The notes under the pieces are model-generated. The model searched no databases. It was not told the DNA's origin and saw nothing but the letters and a program-made list of their open reading frames with translations. 64,000 bases of DNA from Thioclava marina (GTDB lineage: Bacteria; Pseudomonadota; Alphaproteobacteria; Rhodobacterales; Rhodobacteraceae), in NCBI RefSeq assembly GCF_002020135.1, contig NZ_MPZS01000001.1, forward strand, positions 1,798,001-1,862,000. The letters are read 5' to 3'. Every line of letters starts with the position of its first letter. Positions within the stretch are counted from its first letter, which is position 1. A program made the position numbers and the translations under genes. Positions 10,390 through 15,505 of the stretch are shown here, one piece after another.

Positions 10390-11161
10390 TCTGACGCTGC
10401 TGACAGAGGCCGCGAAGGAGGCCGGGAAGCTCGCCCTGAAATATTGGAAGAAAGCGCCGACCTCATGGGAGAAGGATGGCGGTGCGGGACCTGTCTCCGA
10501 GGCCGACCTCGCCGTCAATGACCTGCTCGAAGAGCAGCTGCGTGGCGCGCGTCCCGATTACGGATGGCTGTCCGAGGAAAGCGCGGACGATCCGGCGCGT
10601 CTGGCGGCGCCCGCGACCTTCATCGTCGACCCGATCGACGGCACCCGCGCCTTTCTCAACGATGATGGAAGTTTCGCCCATGCGCTTGCGGTGGCCCGTG
10701 GGGGCGAGGTCGTGGCGGGCGTCGTTCACCTGCCGGTGCATGACCTCACCTATACCGCGACGATCGACGGGCCGGCCCTGCTCAATGGCGAGCCGATTGC
10801 CCCGGCAGCGCGTTCCGAGCTGGAGGGCGCAAGCGTGTTGACCTCGAGGCTTTCGGACAACCCCACCCTTTGGAGACACGGGCTGCCGGGGTACAAACGC
10901 AACTTCCGTTCCTCTCTCGCCTGGCGGCTCTGCCTCGTGGCAGAGGGCAAATTCGATGCGACGATTTCTCTGCGCAAGGCATGGGAATGGGATATTGCGG
11001 CGGCAAGCCTGATCGCGCGGCGCGCCGGGCTGCTGGCGACGGACCGGCACGGCAAGGAGCTCCACTTCAACCGCGCGCCTCCGCTGTCGAACGGGTTGAT
11101 CGTGTCGAATGCGGCCCTGCACGCCGCTTTTCTCGAAAACCTCGCATTTTGGCCGGAATAG
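10376..11161 (+). CDS. Inositol monophosphatase family phosphatase (CysQ-like)
   Basis: 261-residue Mg-dependent phosphatase. Family motifs are complete: GWLSEES (63-69), the metal-binding DPIDGTRAF (85-93) and WEWDIAAAS (about 203). The family covers inositol phosphatases and 3'(2'),5'-bisphosphate nucleotidases (CysQ); the short length and the sequence around the metal site favour the CysQ-like branch, but the substrate is an inference. The best start is TTG at 10376 inside the end of pmbA, preceded by GAAGGGATGACGC. No ATG is available before the conserved helix. It overlaps pmbA by 14 bp, implying cotranscription. Its end is 3 bp from the convergent anti-sigma gene. Confidence 0.85.
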   Translation: MPETDLTLLTEAAKEAGKLALKYWKKAPTSWEKDGGAGPVSEADLAVNDLLEEQLRGARPDYGWLSEESADDPARLAAPATFIVDPIDGTRAFLNDDGSFAHALAVARGGEVVAGVVHLPVHDLTYTATIDGPALLNGEPIAPAARSELEGASVLTSRLSDNPTLWRHGLPGYKRNFRSSLAWRLCLVAEGKFDATISLRKAWEWDIAAASLIARRAGLLATDRHGKELHFNRAPPLSNGLIVSNAALHAAFLENLAFWPE

Positions 11162-11164
11162 ACC

Positions 11165-11794
11165 CTACCAGCGTAGCAAGAGCCGTCCCAGAAGCGCCCC
11201 TGCGATCACGGTGATCGCGATCCCTGCGCCATACCAGGTTACATAGAAAAGCGGGCTGTCCTCGGTGCAATGGAGCGCATAGATCGCTGTGCCGAGCCCT
11301 CCGGCGGCAAGCCCGGCGGCTGCCCCCGCGCGCTCGGGTGCCATCACCGCGCCCTGACGCAGGCTGGTGAGCACGGCTGCGAGGATAGGCGCGGAAAACA
11401 TCGGGATCGAAAGCAGGCAGGGCAGGATCGTCTTGCCGCGAAAATCCATCATGCGCTGGCTTTCGGGCGTGGTGAGATAGGCATAGCCGATCAGAAGCAG
11501 CCCGATCACCGGGAATATCCACACCCAGCTCAGCCGGGCGCGCGCAAGCGGACGGGCGAATTTCAGCGCGACCGGCATTGCGATCACCCCGAGCAGAAGC
11601 GGCAGGTAGAATTTCGGGGCAATATCCGGCGTCATCAGGGTCTTTTCCATCGGAAAGCGAACCCCCAAAAGCCCCGCCATCGCGAGCGCCGACAGGATCA
11701 GCGCCGGGATCAGCCAGTGCCAGAGCACCCTTCCCGCATGCGGCTCGCGCAGCTCGTCCTTCTCCAGTAATGCCAACAGATCTTCGGTCTTCAT
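11165..11794 (-). CDS. nrsF: NrsF-type membrane anti-sigma factor (DUF1109)
   Basis: 209-residue protein with about six membrane segments (roughly 25-45, 60-78, 90-108, 125-145, 155-172, 185-205), matching DUF1109/NrsF. In Caulobacter NrsF holds the ECF factor SigF inactive at the membrane until metal or redox stress. The N-terminal cytoplasmic stretch [18 protein letters not shown] would contact the sigma factor. Cysteines in ILPCLLS and ALHCTED are candidates for the sensing pair. The start overlaps the sigma factor stop by four bases (ATGA), so the two are translationally coupled. Confidence 0.88.
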
Positions 11795-12342
11795 ATCTCG
11801 ATCAGTCTCTCTCGAAGCGCGGCCAGTTTCTTGAGCGAGCGGTGCAGCATCACGCGCACCGCCCCCTCGCTCATATCCATCGCGTCACCTATCTCGGCGA
11901 TGCTTTTCCCTTCCAACCCGATCGCCCGGACCAGTTGCTCGGCCCTCGGCTCCAGATGGCTCAAAAACGTCTCAATATCGGCCTGCTCGGTCGGATCAGC
12001 CTCGGGCGCCGCAGGCAGGATCTCGGCGAAATCCTCAACCGGAAGGTGGATCCGACGGCCCCGCTTGCGAAACGCATCGACCACCTTGTGCCGGGCGATC
12101 GCATAACACCAGGGCGCGGCCGGTTCGTCCTCGCGCCAAGTGTGGCGCTTGAGATGGATCGCGAGCAGAACCTCCTGCAAGACATCCTCGCAATCGGCCT
12201 CCGGCAGGCCCGCCCCGCGCGCCCGCACGACTGCGCGCAGCACCGGAGTCACCGCGTTCAAAAACAGACCGTAGGCGCGCGCATCGCCTGCGTTGGCGGC
12301 CCTGAGAAGCCGCGTCCAGTCTGCCTGCCGATCATGCATCAT
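11791..12342 (-). CDS. sigF: ECF sigma factor, SigF-like
   Basis: 183-residue extracytoplasmic-function sigma factor. Region 2 is visible from DARAYGLFL to [13 protein letters not shown], followed by [20 protein letters not shown] (region 2.4). Region 4 is [21 protein letters not shown] plus [14 protein letters not shown]. It is paired with an NrsF gene and divergent from a bufferin operon, as in Caulobacter SigF systems. The same promoter motif precedes this gene and the bufferin operon, suggesting autoregulation. The start could be either of two adjacent ATGs (12342 or 12339). The putative -10 element is only nine bases away, so the mRNA may be nearly leaderless. Confidence 0.9.
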
Positions 12343-12351
12343 CGCCTACCC

Positions 12352-12377
12352 TTCGTTGCCGATCATGCCTTCGTTAC
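12352..12377 (-). promoter_or_regulatory. Putative ECF (SigF-type) promoter of sigF-nrsF
   Basis: On the minus strand, GTAACG (12377-12372), 16 bases, then CGAA (12355-12352). The same motif with the same spacing drives the divergent bufferin operon. It is close to the GTAACC-N16-CGAA pattern I recall for Caulobacter SigF. Confidence 0.75.
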
Positions 12378-12420
12378 GGTGCGCGGGAAAAACTTTTTTC
12401 GATCACGGAAGCGTGAGCCT

Positions 12421-12446
12421 GTAACGCCGCCGCGATCCACCCCGAA
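12421..12446 (+). promoter_or_regulatory. Putative ECF (SigF-type) promoter of the bufferin operon
   Basis: GTAACG (12421-12426), 16 bases, CGAA (12443-12446). This places a start site near 12452 and gives a leader of about 47 bases before the ATG at 12499. The motif is identical to the one on the opposite strand for sigF. Confidence 0.78.
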
Positions 12447-12498
12447 GAGAGGTCAGGACCGCAACGGGTCCGATACAGATCCAATCAGGGAGATCACC

Positions 12499-12771
12499 AT
12501 GAAGACCGAAACCACCCTTGGCATTGCTGCCGCTCTGAGCTGCGCGATGGGCATCGCGAGCGCTGCACATGCCGACGAGATGAAGATGGAGAAGTGCTAC
12601 GGCGTCGCGATGGCGGGCCAGAACGACTGCGCGGCGGGCCCCGGCACGACCTGCGCCGGTACTGCAACGAAGGATTATCAGGGCAACGCCTGGAAACTCG
12701 TCCCGGCGGGCACCTGCGAGACGATCGAGACGCCGCACGGGATGGGCTCGCTCATGCCGAAGGAGATGTGA
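12499..12771 (+). CDS. bufA: Bufferin-type RiPP precursor (DUF2282)
   Basis: 90-residue DUF2282 protein. Residues 1-25 form a Sec signal peptide ([15 protein letters not shown] then D26), so the product is exported. The mature part has four cysteines, at 33, 44, 52 and 73, in EKCYG, NDCAAG, TTCAGT and GTCET, the bufferin 1 pattern. From memory, in Caulobacter the two central cysteines are converted to thiooxazoles by the neighbouring MNIO enzyme and its partner, and the peptide then binds copper in the periplasm. It is the first gene of the operon bufA-bufB-bufC-doxX, behind a SigF-type promoter. AGGGAGATCACC precedes the ATG. Confidence 0.9.
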
Positions 12772-12823
12772 TCACAGGTCGGGGCGGGCCTGTCCCGCCC
12801 CTCCTCTGTTAAGGGAGGCCACC

Positions 12824-13666
12824 ATGACGCTGCCGCGCAAACCGGGACTGGGATTCAAGCCCGAGCATTTCCCCACCATCGCCGAAACCAGGCCCGATCT
12901 GGGGTTTTTCGAAATCCATGCCGAGAATTACATGGGCGCGGGTGGTCTGCCCCATGCGATGTTGCAAAGGCTGCGAGAGGATTACGCGCTGTCGGTTCAT
13001 GGCGTTGGCCTGTCTATCGGCGGGCCAGATCCGCTCGATCGCGGTCACCTTGCGCGGCTCAAAGCGCTTTGCGATCGCTACGATCCGGAGAGCTTTTCCG
13101 AACATCTCGCCTGGGCGAGCCATGGCGGGGCCTGGATGCATGACCTGCTGCCACTACCCTATACTCAGGAGACGCTGAATCTCGTATGTGATCACGTAGA
13201 CGAGGTGCAAGAGCATCTGGGGCGTCAGATGCTGCTCGAAAACCCCGCCACCTATGTTCTCTTCGATAATTCCGACATTCCCGAGACCGCGTTTCTGTCC
13301 GAGATCAGCCGGCGCACCGGCTGCGGGCTGCTTCTCGATGTGAACAACGTTTTTGTCTCCTGCGTGAACCATCGGCAGGATCCGCGCGCCTATCTCGCGG
13401 AGTTCCCGTTGGCGCAGATTGGAGAGGTTCATCTGGCCGGGCATGAAGAGGAAGATCTGCCCTCCGGACCATTCCTGATCGACAGCCACGGGCGGGAAGT
13501 CGCAGAACCCGTTTGGGCACTTTATGCTGAAATAGTCTCGAAAATTGGGCCTCTTCCCAGCCTGATCGAATGGGACAATGACGTTCCTGCCTTCCCGGTT
13601 CTGATGGCCGAAGCAGAGCGTGCGCGCACCATATTGGAAGGGCAAAGCCATGCTCTCGCATCGTGA
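12824..13666 (+). CDS. bufB: Multinuclear non-heme iron oxidase (MNIO, DUF692) BufB
   Basis: 280-residue DUF692/MNIO TIM-barrel enzyme. Metal-ligand motifs along the chain are [11 protein letters not shown] (28-38), [11 protein letters not shown] (about 57-67), FSEHLAW (about 90), LLENPATYV (about 135), [10 protein letters not shown] (about 170), VHLAGHEEE (about 205) and [10 protein letters not shown] (about 252). MNIO enzymes oxidise cysteines of RiPP precursors. The gene order makes the upstream DUF2282 peptide the likely substrate. AGGGAGGCCACC precedes the ATG. The start codon of bufC lies inside its end (17-bp overlap), so enzyme and partner are probably made together. Confidence 0.93.
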
Positions 13667-14423
13667 TTTCGCGCGCAGCTTTCGTGATGCGATCAGGGGC
13701 GGCGTCGCGCCCGAGAACGCAACCGCGTGCCAGCCTGCCGAGACAGAGCGGCGTTTTGACGTCTACCGCAATAACGTCGCGCACAGCCTCTCGCAGGCCC
13801 TTGCACGCCATTACCCGGTGATCGAGCGGCTACTGGGCGAGGAGTGTTTCAATGGGACGGCACGGCTTTTCATCGACCAGTATCCACCGCGAACACCGGT
13901 CTTGACCGAGTGGGGCGAGGAATTCGCAGCGTTCCTCGCCGAAATAGAGACGTTTCAGTCGCTGACCTACCTGCCCGACGTTGCGCAGATCGAATGGGCG
14001 CGCAGTCGCGCCTATCACTCGGCCGATGCGGACCCAATGATGCCTCGGGATCTGCAGGCGATTGCGCAAGAGGCCGGGGAGAAACTGCGGCTTTTCCTCC
14101 ACCCGTCGGTGCAGGTTTTACAAATGCTCACTCCGGCGGGGTCGATCTGGGCGTCGCAACAACCCGGCGGAGCGCCCGCACCGACAGCTGCGCAATGGGC
14201 GCCTGAGACGGTTTTGATCGCGCGCAAAGGGCTCGCCGAAGTCGTCACCCGCACCGTGCCCGCACCGATCGGGCGCTTCATTTCCGCCCTGCTAAACGGC
14301 CGAACCTTCGCCGAGGCCCAGGCATCCGCTGGAGAGGGATTCGAGTTGAACGCAGCATTTCTGCTGCTTGTCGAAAACGCGCTGATCGTTGGCGCGGGCC
14401 GAAAGGGAGGGAATGGGAAATGA
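13650..14423 (+). CDS. bufC: RiPP-recognition partner protein BufC (DUF2063)
   Basis: 257-residue protein with the N-terminal DUF2063 domain (about 5-95: [38 protein letters not shown]), typical of the partner of DUF692 enzymes. Related proteins (HvfC, MbnC-like) bind the precursor peptide and complete the oxidase. The C-terminal half is helical with no motif I can name. The start at 13650 follows GGAAGGGCAAAGCC and lies inside bufB. The stop overlaps the start of the DoxX gene (ATGA). Confidence 0.9.
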
Positions 14424-14887
14424 CCAGCGCAATCGGAGCAAGACCACAGAAAAAGGGTCTATTCCACCTCTATCGAGGAATCATCCGAGCGACATCCCTT
14501 ATCCCTCGTGAGCTGCCCCTGATCGCCGCCCGGATCTTTCCGGCGGCAGTGTTCTGGATGTCGGGACGCACCAAGGTCGAGGGGATCAGGATCAAGGACT
14601 CGACCTTCACCCTATTCCAGTACGAATACGCCCTCCCCTTGATCCCTCATAATTGGGCGGCGGTCTTGGCAACATTTGCCGAGCATTTCTTTCCGGTCCT
14701 TCTCATCCTCGGCCTGGCGACACGGCTCTCGGCGCTGGCACTACTGGGAATGACGCTGGTCATTCAGATCTTCGTCTATCCCGGCGCCTGGGTGACGCAT
14801 GGGCTCTGGGCCGTGGCATTGCTCACCGTGATCACGCGAGGCCCGGGGCGGTTTTCTCTCGATCGGGTGATCGGATTGGAGCGCTGA
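14420..14887 (+). CDS. DoxX family membrane protein of the bufferin operon
   Basis: 155-residue DoxX family protein with about four membrane segments (roughly 35-50, 75-98, 102-120, 122-140) and the typical SGRTKVEG loop after the first helix. DoxX proteins often end DUF2282-DUF692-DUF2063 operons; a role in the redox state of the quinone pool or envelope, or in electron supply, is speculative. It is translationally coupled to bufC through a 4-bp overlap. The flavin reductase gene starts 51 bp later and could be a separate unit. Confidence 0.85.
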
Positions 14888-14938
14888 GCCTTGCCCTCCC
14901 CGCCCGGGCCATTATGTCTGTGCCCAAAGGGAGATCGG

Positions 14939-15505
14939 ATGAGCGAAAGCGACGATATCGATGCCGCCATGAACCGGGCGGAGCGCGCGGTACGTGGCGG
15001 GGAAATGCCCGACCCGTCCGAGACCCGACGTCTGCGCAACGCTCTGGGGCGCTTTGCGACCGGTGTGACCGTGATCACGGCCTGCGAATGCGACGACCAT
15101 CTCGGTCCGGTCGGCATGACGGTCAACAGTTTTGCCTCGGTCTCGCTCGATCCGCCCCTGATCCTGTGGTCGGCGGCGCGGAGCTCGATCCGCCATGCGC
15201 ATTTCACCAAAACCCCGTCCTTCGCGGTGCACGTGCTGCGCCACGATCAGGAATATCTCGCGCATCGCTTCACCCGCCGCGGCACCGGGTTTTCCGGGCT
15301 GGATTATACGCAGAACGAGGCGGGCGTGCCGCTTCTGGCCGACCCGCTCGCGCGGTTCGAATGCGTCACGGAGGCACGCCATGACGGTGGCGATCACACG
15401 ATCATCATCGGCCGGGTGACACGTTTCGAAAGCGCTGCGGAAGGCACACCGCTCATCTTCTCGGGCGGACAGTTCGGCAGCTTCCGCCCCGATCAGTCGA
15501 GCTGA
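14939..15505 (+). CDS. Flavin reductase family protein
   Basis: 188-residue FMN-binding split-barrel protein of the flavin reductase (HpaC/DIM6) family. Recognisable parts are LRNALGRFATGVTVIT (about 30), GPVGMTVNSFASVSLDPPLILW (about 60, the flavin phosphate region) and a C-terminal DHTIIIGRVTRFE strand. Such proteins supply reduced flavin to a two-component monooxygenase or act alone; no monooxygenase partner is next to it. AAAGGGAG precedes ATG 14939. Its 3' end overlaps the convergent pqiC gene by 13 bp. Confidence 0.9.
   Translation: MSESDDIDAAMNRAERAVRGGEMPDPSETRRLRNALGRFATGVTVITACECDDHLGPVGMTVNSFASVSLDPPLILWSAARSSIRHAHFTKTPSFAVHVLRHDQEYLAHRFTRRGTGFSGLDYTQNEAGVPLLADPLARFECVTEARHDGGDHTIIIGRVTRFESAAEGTPLIFSGGQFGSFRPDQSS

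What the first reader, a model, noticed from the sequence alone, without database searches (positions are those of the whole stretch)
11165..14887. Bufferin-type copper RiPP operon with its own ECF sigma/anti-sigma pair
The sequence shows a DUF2282 precursor with a signal peptide and four Cys (33, 44, 52, 73), a DUF692/MNIO enzyme, a DUF2063 partner and a DoxX protein, coupled by overlaps, divergent from an ECF factor with an NrsF anti-sigma gene. Established work on Caulobacter bufferins (as I recall) shows MNIO-made thiooxazoles and copper binding in the periplasm. Inference: this organism makes an exported, Cys-modified metal-buffering peptide under SigF control. The full unit in a marine-type Rhodobacterales genome would be worth testing.
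Basis: partly seen in the sequence, partly recalled or inferred. Interest (0 to 1): 0.8.

Follow-up and report, generated by a model that had tools for sequence, protein, structure and literature searches.

The report
Copper-buffering peptide operon with own sigma
This looks like a standard bacterial gene set for making an exported, chemically modified copper-binding peptide, switched on by its own metal-stress regulator; the same set is already described in Caulobacter, so it is largely ordinary.

Summary
Six genes lie at 11165-14887: nrsF and sigF on the minus strand; a DUF2282 precursor (bufA), an MNIO enzyme (bufB, above NCBIfam's bufferin-maturase cut-off), a DUF2063 partner (bufC) and doxX on the plus strand. 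The four cysteines are invariant in all 107 BufA sequences aligned.

Both sides of the divergent intergenic region carry the published Caulobacter sigma-F element, kept in 12 of 12 genomes of the genus with this SigF (own included). A third site precedes msrPQ in 11 of 11 such genomes with msrP, and 0 of 4 without SigF; outside the genus it is mostly absent.

This is a Buf1 bufferin cluster of the published SigF/NrsF type. In the family DUF2282 is common (211 of 295), NrsF less so (18 of 120).

Corrections: bufA does not overlap bufB, and the expected loss is 4 Da per modified Cys, not per pair.

One feature I did not find in print: a hairpin without T-tract after bufA (60 of 107 loci at z < -2; 12 of 95 background gaps). 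I read it as keeping precursor mRNA in excess. Chemistry and copper binding were not tested.

The parts
11165..11794 (-). nrsF, membrane anti-sigma factor (209 aa; C126, C176)
   Evidence: Pfam NrsF E 2.5e-48; C126 in 56 of 57 and C176 in 57 of 57 aligned sequences, window included; below the NCBIfam AntiSigF_NrsF equivalog cut-off, 71.6 against 300
11791..12342 (-). sigF, ECF sigma factor (183 aa); 4-nt overlap with nrsF
   Evidence: Sigma70_r2 and r4_2; NF009165 221.4 bits, above its cut-off of 198
12352..12377 (-). SigF-type promoter element GTAACG-N16-CGAA in front of sigF
   Evidence: kept in 12 of 12 genomes of the genus with this SigF, own included
12421..12446 (+). SigF-type promoter element GTAACG-N16-CGAA in front of bufA
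   Evidence: kept in 12 of 12 genomes of the genus with this SigF, own included
12499..12771 (+). bufA, Buf1/DUF2282 precursor (90 aa), putative Sec signal ending AHA(25), C33, C44, C52, C73
   Evidence: Pfam DUF2282 E 6.4e-27; four Cys in 107 of 107 aligned sequences, window included; the signal peptide is my reading of the sequence
12781..12801 (+). hairpin (8-bp stem, 5-nt loop) in the bufA-bufB gap, no T-tract
   Evidence: window gap z -1.94; a stem-loop is predicted in 12 of 12 genus loci, no shuffles run there; 60 of 107 loci at z < -2 against 12 of 95 background gaps
12824..13666 (+). bufB, MNIO enzyme (280 aa)
   Evidence: MNIO_BufB equivalog, 387.5 bits against a cut-off of 310; PDB relatives 3bww, 8hci_D (DUF692 family), MbnB
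13650..14423 (+). bufC, DUF2063 partner protein (PME type 1, 257 aa)
   Evidence: Pfam DUF2063; AlphaFold2 model pLDDT 95.7; best PDB folds 8hci_A and 8hi7_A of the TglHI complex, then 3dee
14420..14887 (+). doxX, DoxX-family membrane protein (155 aa)
   Evidence: Pfam DoxX E 2.5e-17; below the NCBIfam HvfX cut-off, 53.1 against 80

Best explanation
A Buf1 bufferin (captophorin) gene cluster with an ECF16-type sigma/anti-sigma switch that has its own element in front of it. Shown by sequence: the six genes, the invariant cysteines, and sigma-F elements before sigF, bufA and (elsewhere in the genome) msrP. Inferred from relatives: thiophilic metal acts on the two NrsF cysteines, NrsF releases SigF, and SigF transcribes bufABC-doxX, sigF-nrsF and msrPQ. 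BufB with BufC turns the two central cysteines (C44, C52) into thiooxazoles in the cytoplasm, with the signal peptide acting as leader. Sec exports the peptide, C33 and C73 form a disulfide, and the product binds surplus copper in the periplasm while MsrPQ repairs oxidised methionines there. The hairpin after bufA probably keeps precursor message in excess over enzyme message.
For: Families and cut-offs; four Cys in 107 of 107 sequences; BufC model fold shared with TglHI-complex chain A (TM 0.57-0.61) and NGO1945/3dee. Promoters: the Caulobacter sigma-F sequence GTAACC-N16-CGAA is published (PMC3511200). Here 6 exact GTAAC-N17-CGAA sites exist genome-wide (reversed-pattern control 10+9), and three of the six are in front of sigF, bufA and msrP, whose Caulobacter counterparts carry the element (CC3253, CC3254, CC2748). 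Genus test: sigF 12 of 12, bufA 12 of 12, msrP 11 of 11 with SigF and 0 of 4 without, own genome included. In Caulobacter the regulon is copper-induced and a sigF mutant grows poorly in copper (PMC8224329).
Against: No expression, mass or metal data for this organism. Only 33 of 58 relatives with divergent SigF have the exact element before bufA and 23 of 58 before sigF; 19 of 58 have neither. The msrP site is mostly missing outside the genus: none of 29 family genomes has it exactly; 1 of 9 with NrsF has a one-mismatch site, another of the 9 has one with a spacer one base shorter, and 0 of 20 without NrsF have a one-mismatch site. The four genus genomes without SigF are also its more divergent members, so the msrP contrast is partly confounded by ancestry. 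Caulobacter sigF is not strongly autoregulated under metal stress, and its regulon was found with Cr and Cd. In Cupriavidus metallidurans the cluster does not affect copper resistance, though other copper systems could mask it.
Confidence: 0.93

Rival explanations
1. Same genes, but the natural role is a response to another thiophilic or oxidising stress (Cd, Cr, Au/Ag, HOCl); copper binding is secondary.
For: Caulobacter SigF is induced by chromate and cadmium; gig operons respond to Au, Ag and Cu, and in C. metallidurans without effect on copper resistance (PMC8224329); ECF16 regulons elsewhere share Msr genes and answer ROS or reactive chlorine (PMC8315932); msrP carries the element here.
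Against: In Caulobacter sigF loss harmed growth in copper, while sensitivity to Cr and Cd was unchanged.
Confidence: 0.25
2. The DUF2282 protein is exported unmodified and buffers metal through free thiols; BufB/BufC act on something else.
For: Sizeable proportions of bufferin precursor genes are not associated with MNIO genes (PMC12452194).
Against: In the loci examined bufA, bufB and bufC sit together in nearly all (they were fetched through bufA or bufB, so this is not an unbiased sample); one DUF2282 and one MNIO match in the genome here.
Confidence: 0.04
3. The hairpin after bufA is a by-product of GC-rich intergenic DNA with no role.
For: The window's own gap scores only z -1.94; 47 of 107 loci do not reach z < -2; 60 nt before bufA also fold somewhat better than shuffles, 25 of 106 at z < -2.
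Against: 60 of 107 loci at z < -2 after bufA, against 12 of 95 other same-strand gaps in 80 of these loci plus the window, 6 of 106 in the end of bufA and 4 of 106 in the start of bufB; a stem-loop is predicted in 12 of 12 genus loci although its sequence changes.
Confidence: 0.2

Closest known systems
Caulobacter sigF-nrsF / bufferin operon (CC3252-CC3257) with regulon gene CC2748 (yedY)
   Same: Same gene kinds (DUF2282, DUF692, DUF2063, DoxX), SigF/NrsF, near-identical promoter element, msrP-type target (PMC3511200).
   Different: One DUF2282 and one MNIO match here; Caulobacter has a second operon, CC2907-CC2905.
Buf1 bufferin BGC with sigma/NrsF (PMC12452194)
   Same: Core precursor, MNIO, DUF2063 and DoxX genes; sigma and NrsF genes reported in Buf1 clusters.
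   Different: The words hairpin, stem-loop, terminator and attenuat- do not occur in that main text.
HvfABC / oxazolin and other captophorins (PMC12668002, PMC13419390)
   Same: MNIO plus DUF2063-type partner installing thiooxazole on Cys; in Hvf the precursor has a Sec signal.
   Different: Precursor here is DUF2282, not a repeated Lys-Cys type; BufC and DoxX fall below the Hvf cut-offs.
ECF16 systems controlling msr genes (Brucella BcrS/AbcS, Azospira SigF, Bradyrhizobium EcfF)
   Same: NrsF-type anti-sigma (Brucella) and Msr targets, as told in PMC8315932 (passages).
   Different: No bufferin genes named in the passages I saw; 'DUF692' has 0 occurrences in that paper.

Membership tests
Buf1 bufferin | DUF2282 domain with four conserved Cys | tested here: met
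   Pfam 93.7 bits, cut-off 22.4; four Cys kept in 107 of 107 sequences
Buf1 bufferin | MNIO enzyme of the BufB type next to the precursor | tested here: met
   NF050167 387.5 bits, cut-off 310
Buf1 bufferin | DUF2063 plus RRE-type partner (PME type 1) | tested here: met
   Pfam DUF2063 over residues 8-96; 257 aa; model matches TglHI-complex chain A (TM about 0.6) and, more weakly, 3dee (E 1.2e-3, TM 0.47-0.57), a DUF2063-RRE protein per PMC12452194
Buf1 bufferin | N-terminal Sec signal peptide | tested here: inconclusive
   hydrophobic stretch and AHA(25) seen by eye; no signal-peptide predictor was run
Buf1 bufferin | first and last Cys in a disulfide, central Cys as thiooxazoles | not testable with these tools
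Buf1 bufferin | binds copper, raises copper tolerance | not testable with these tools
   stated for bufferins in PMC12452194; no data for this organism
SigF/NrsF (ECF16) | ECF sigma with NrsF/DUF1109 anti-sigma bearing two conserved Cys | tested here: met
SigF/NrsF (ECF16) | GTAACC-N16-CGAA element before its targets | tested here: met
   sites with one change at the sixth base: GTAACG before sigF and bufA, GTAACA before msrP
NCBIfam AntiSigF_NrsF equivalog | score above the curated cut-off of 300 | tested here: not met
   71.6 bits; the Pfam family cut-off is met
NCBIfam HvfC / HvfX equivalogs | scores above the cut-offs (142, 80) | tested here: not met
   56.7 and 53.1 bits, so these are not filed as Hvf proteins

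The most novel reading that the evidence does not exclude
Bufferin operons carry a stem-loop, kept in structure rather than sequence and without a T-tract, right after the precursor gene. It protects or processes the mRNA so that the short precursor message greatly exceeds the enzyme message, in contrast to the mostly overlapping bufB-bufC-doxX genes. In this genus the same SigF also couples the copper peptide to periplasmic methionine-sulfoxide repair (msrPQ).
Probability: 0.5. Interest if true: 0.35.

Novelty: new member of a known kind. Interest (0 to 1): 0.27.

Why it matters
It places one more genus in the SigF-bufferin group, with a testable three-promoter regulon (sigF-nrsF, bufABC-doxX, msrPQ). 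The hairpin gives a simple, testable account of how bufferin operons could make far more peptide than enzyme. The main system itself is already published.

Tried and rejected
A fourth exact promoter site ends 64 nt upstream of a TetR gene (Pfam) followed by a frame that looks HlyD-like by eye (G000:C1:1726342, L004; its profile scan failed and was not repeated). It matches the Caulobacter consensus exactly, but none of the five other TetR homologues compared from the genus (two at 93% identity, three at 49-59%) has it, even with one mismatch, so I treat it as chance. The other two genome sites (L002, L003) fall inside long open frames.

An intrinsic terminator after bufA was considered: at least 5 T in the 8 bases after the longest stem occurs in 3 of 107, and the terminator scan of 11000-15000 did not list the site (4 others listed, 3.0 expected). 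No sigma-70-like promoter was found there (0, expected 0.8). PDB sequence search gave nothing for BufC at E <= 0.01 and only chance-level hits for BufA (best E 0.15).

The msrP link was tested outside the genus and largely not found.
Full report
What is there. The window lies in a 3.65-Mb genome of 5 contigs, rated 100% complete. Six genes occupy 11165-14887: nrsF and sigF on the minus strand, and bufA, bufB, bufC and doxX on the plus strand. Overlaps are 4 nt (sigF/nrsF), 17 nt (bufB/bufC) and 4 nt (bufC/doxX); bufA and bufB are 52 nt apart.

Genes against families. BufB passes the NCBIfam bufferin-maturase equivalog (387.5 bits, cut-off 310); BufA passes DUF2282; BufC passes DUF2063; DoxX and NrsF pass Pfam; SigF passes NF009165. 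BufC and DoxX do not pass the HvfC and HvfX equivalogs, NrsF does not pass the AntiSigF_NrsF equivalog, and NCBIfam has no match for BufA. BufA has C33, C44, C52 and C73 plus C15 in the putative signal peptide. In an alignment of 107 BufA proteins (window included; identical or cut-off copies left out) the four are invariant and C15 is in 14. BufB keeps H59, H94, E139, D172, N174, N175, H203, D220, H222 and E249 in at least 95% of 107; that these include the iron site is inferred from the match to 3bww and from the HvfB site-3 residues N175, D242 and H244 named in PMC13419390 (passages). AlphaFold2 of BufC is confident (pLDDT 95.7); its only PDB matches at E <= 0.001 are chain A of two TglHI entries (8hci, 8hi7; TM 0.57-0.61), followed by 3dee (E 1.2e-3, TM 0.47-0.57). 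Since 8hci chain D is the DUF692 protein, chain A should be its partner TglI. The BufA model is weak (72.5).

Promoters. PMC3511200 (passages seen) gives the Caulobacter sigma-F sequence as GTAACC-N16-CGAA, with the element before sigF, two bufferin-type operons and CC2748 (YedY). It also says that sigF is not strongly autoregulated under metal stress. I searched this genome for GTAAC-N17-CGAA: 6 sites, with 10+9 for the reversed control pattern; a simple base-composition estimate is 16. Two of the six sit back to back between sigF and bufA, correctly oriented (12352-12377 minus, 12421-12446 plus), where about 0.0006 would be expected. A third ends 56 nt before the start of an msrP-like gene (Oxidored_molyb) that is followed by an msrQ-like frame (msrP and msrQ are my naming from the sequences).

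Genus test. 16 genomes were searched, own included. SigF orthologues of 82% identity or more are in 12 (in one, G296, as two pieces in different frames, the second 76%). The other four have only ECF matches of 30-43% and were counted as lacking it; NrsF was not searched in them. The element precedes sigF in 12 of 12 and bufA in 12 of 12. msrP was found in 15 of 16 (in G297 only 68 residues matched). The element begins 76-83 nt before it in 11 of 11 genomes with SigF and is in 0 of 4 without. The two boxes stay while much of the spacer changes. Against this, the four genomes without SigF are the more divergent ones (68-75% MsrP identity), so ancestry could explain part of the contrast.

Wider test. 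Of 109 relatives' loci (L009-L117) 106 were scored; those left out had no BufA match or repeated another locus. With divergent SigF: element before bufA 33 of 58, before sigF 23 of 58, both 17, neither 19. Without divergent SigF: 8 of 48 and 0 of 48. Control patterns in the SigF group: 1 and 1 hits for the two reversed patterns, and 0, 11, 0, 0 for spacings of 15, 16, 18 and 19 instead of 17; in the other group 0, 0 and 0, 2, 0, 0. So the element is enriched but not universal. For msrP outside the genus: of 29 family genomes none has the exact site; with one mismatch 1 of 9 with NrsF and 0 of 20 without, and one more of the 9 has a site with a shorter spacer. So msrPQ membership is shown at genus level only.

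How common. DUF2282 is in 211 of 295 genomes drawn across the family, NrsF in 18 of 120; both counts include the own genome. The SigF/NrsF form is thus a minority form in the family, but many named relatives have all six genes. The landscape paper (PMC12452194; outline with abstract, sections 4, 14, 18 and passages seen) reports sigma and NrsF genes in Buf1 clusters and the precursor, MNIO, DUF2063 and DoxX genes as the core. PMC8224329 (passages) reports induction of the SigF regulon by copper and poor growth of a sigF mutant in copper in Caulobacter, and also that the cluster does not affect copper resistance in Cupriavidus metallidurans, where other determinants could mask it. The original bufferin paper was not among the listed hits; I know it only through these citations and recall. 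So this is a known system in another organism.

Mass expectation. In fontiphorin a 4-Da loss was localised to each Lys-Cys motif (PMC12668002, passages). Two thiooxazoles and one disulfide in BufA therefore predict about -10 Da, not 4 Da per Cys pair as the finding says.

The hairpin. In the window the bufA-bufB gap holds an 8-bp stem at 12781-12801. Over the loci the gap has a median of 66 nt and no gap or an overlap is seen in 2 of 106 pairs, whereas bufB/bufC overlap or abut in 48 of 75 and bufC/doxX in 43 of 61. The 60 nt after the bufA stop fold better than dinucleotide shuffles at z < -2 in 60 of 107 (window included; mean -2.3), against 6 of 106 for the last 60 nt of bufA, 4 of 106 for the first 60 nt of bufB and 25 of 106 for 60 nt before bufA. 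Other same-strand gaps of 30-250 nt in the 80 named loci and the window give 12 of 95 (genes there were long open frames picked by a simple rule; Fisher p about 9e-11, not corrected for relatedness). In 12 of 12 genus loci a stem-loop is predicted although its sequence differs; no shuffles were run on those. At least 5 T in the next 8 bases occurs in 3 of 107, so it is unlike an intrinsic terminator. Against: the window's own gap scores only -1.94, and 47 of 107 do not reach -2. The terms hairpin, stem-loop, terminator and attenuat- have no occurrence in the main texts of PMC12452194 and PMC3511200, and one library search (10 papers, 8 listed) showed none joining bufferins with such a structure; this is a limited search. 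I read the hairpin as an mRNA-stability or processing element that raises precursor over enzyme; this is inference.

Verdict. A well-supported Buf1 bufferin operon with a SigF/NrsF switch: a new member of a known kind, of modest interest. The recurrent hairpin and the genus-level msrPQ link are the useful additions.

Noticed in passing
12781-12801 and L009-L117, L194-L205: Stem-loop without T-tract directly after the bufferin precursor gene, significant in 60 of 107 loci.
   Followed up: yes
L007 (G000:C1:2096902-2096927): SigF-type element in front of an msrP-msrQ-like pair elsewhere in the genome, conserved in the genus with SigF.
   Followed up: yes
L058, L061, L065, L068: In these relatives sigF-nrsF lie downstream of doxX on the same strand instead of divergent; three of the four still have the element before bufA.
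   Followed up: partly
L205/L210 (G296): The sigF orthologue matches in two pieces in different frames: a broken gene or an assembly error, though the promoter element is intact.
   Followed up: no
L162 (G297): Only the first 68 residues of msrP match; the promoter element before it is kept.
   Followed up: no
G007:C18:55492-55990: Two DUF2282 matches about 340 nt apart on one strand: probable tandem bufferin precursors.
   Followed up: no
201-2965: Open frames that look like a RegB/PrrB sensor kinase, a SenC/Sco1-type copper chaperone and a RegA/PrrA regulator, about 8 kb from the operon (named by eye, no profile run).
   Followed up: no
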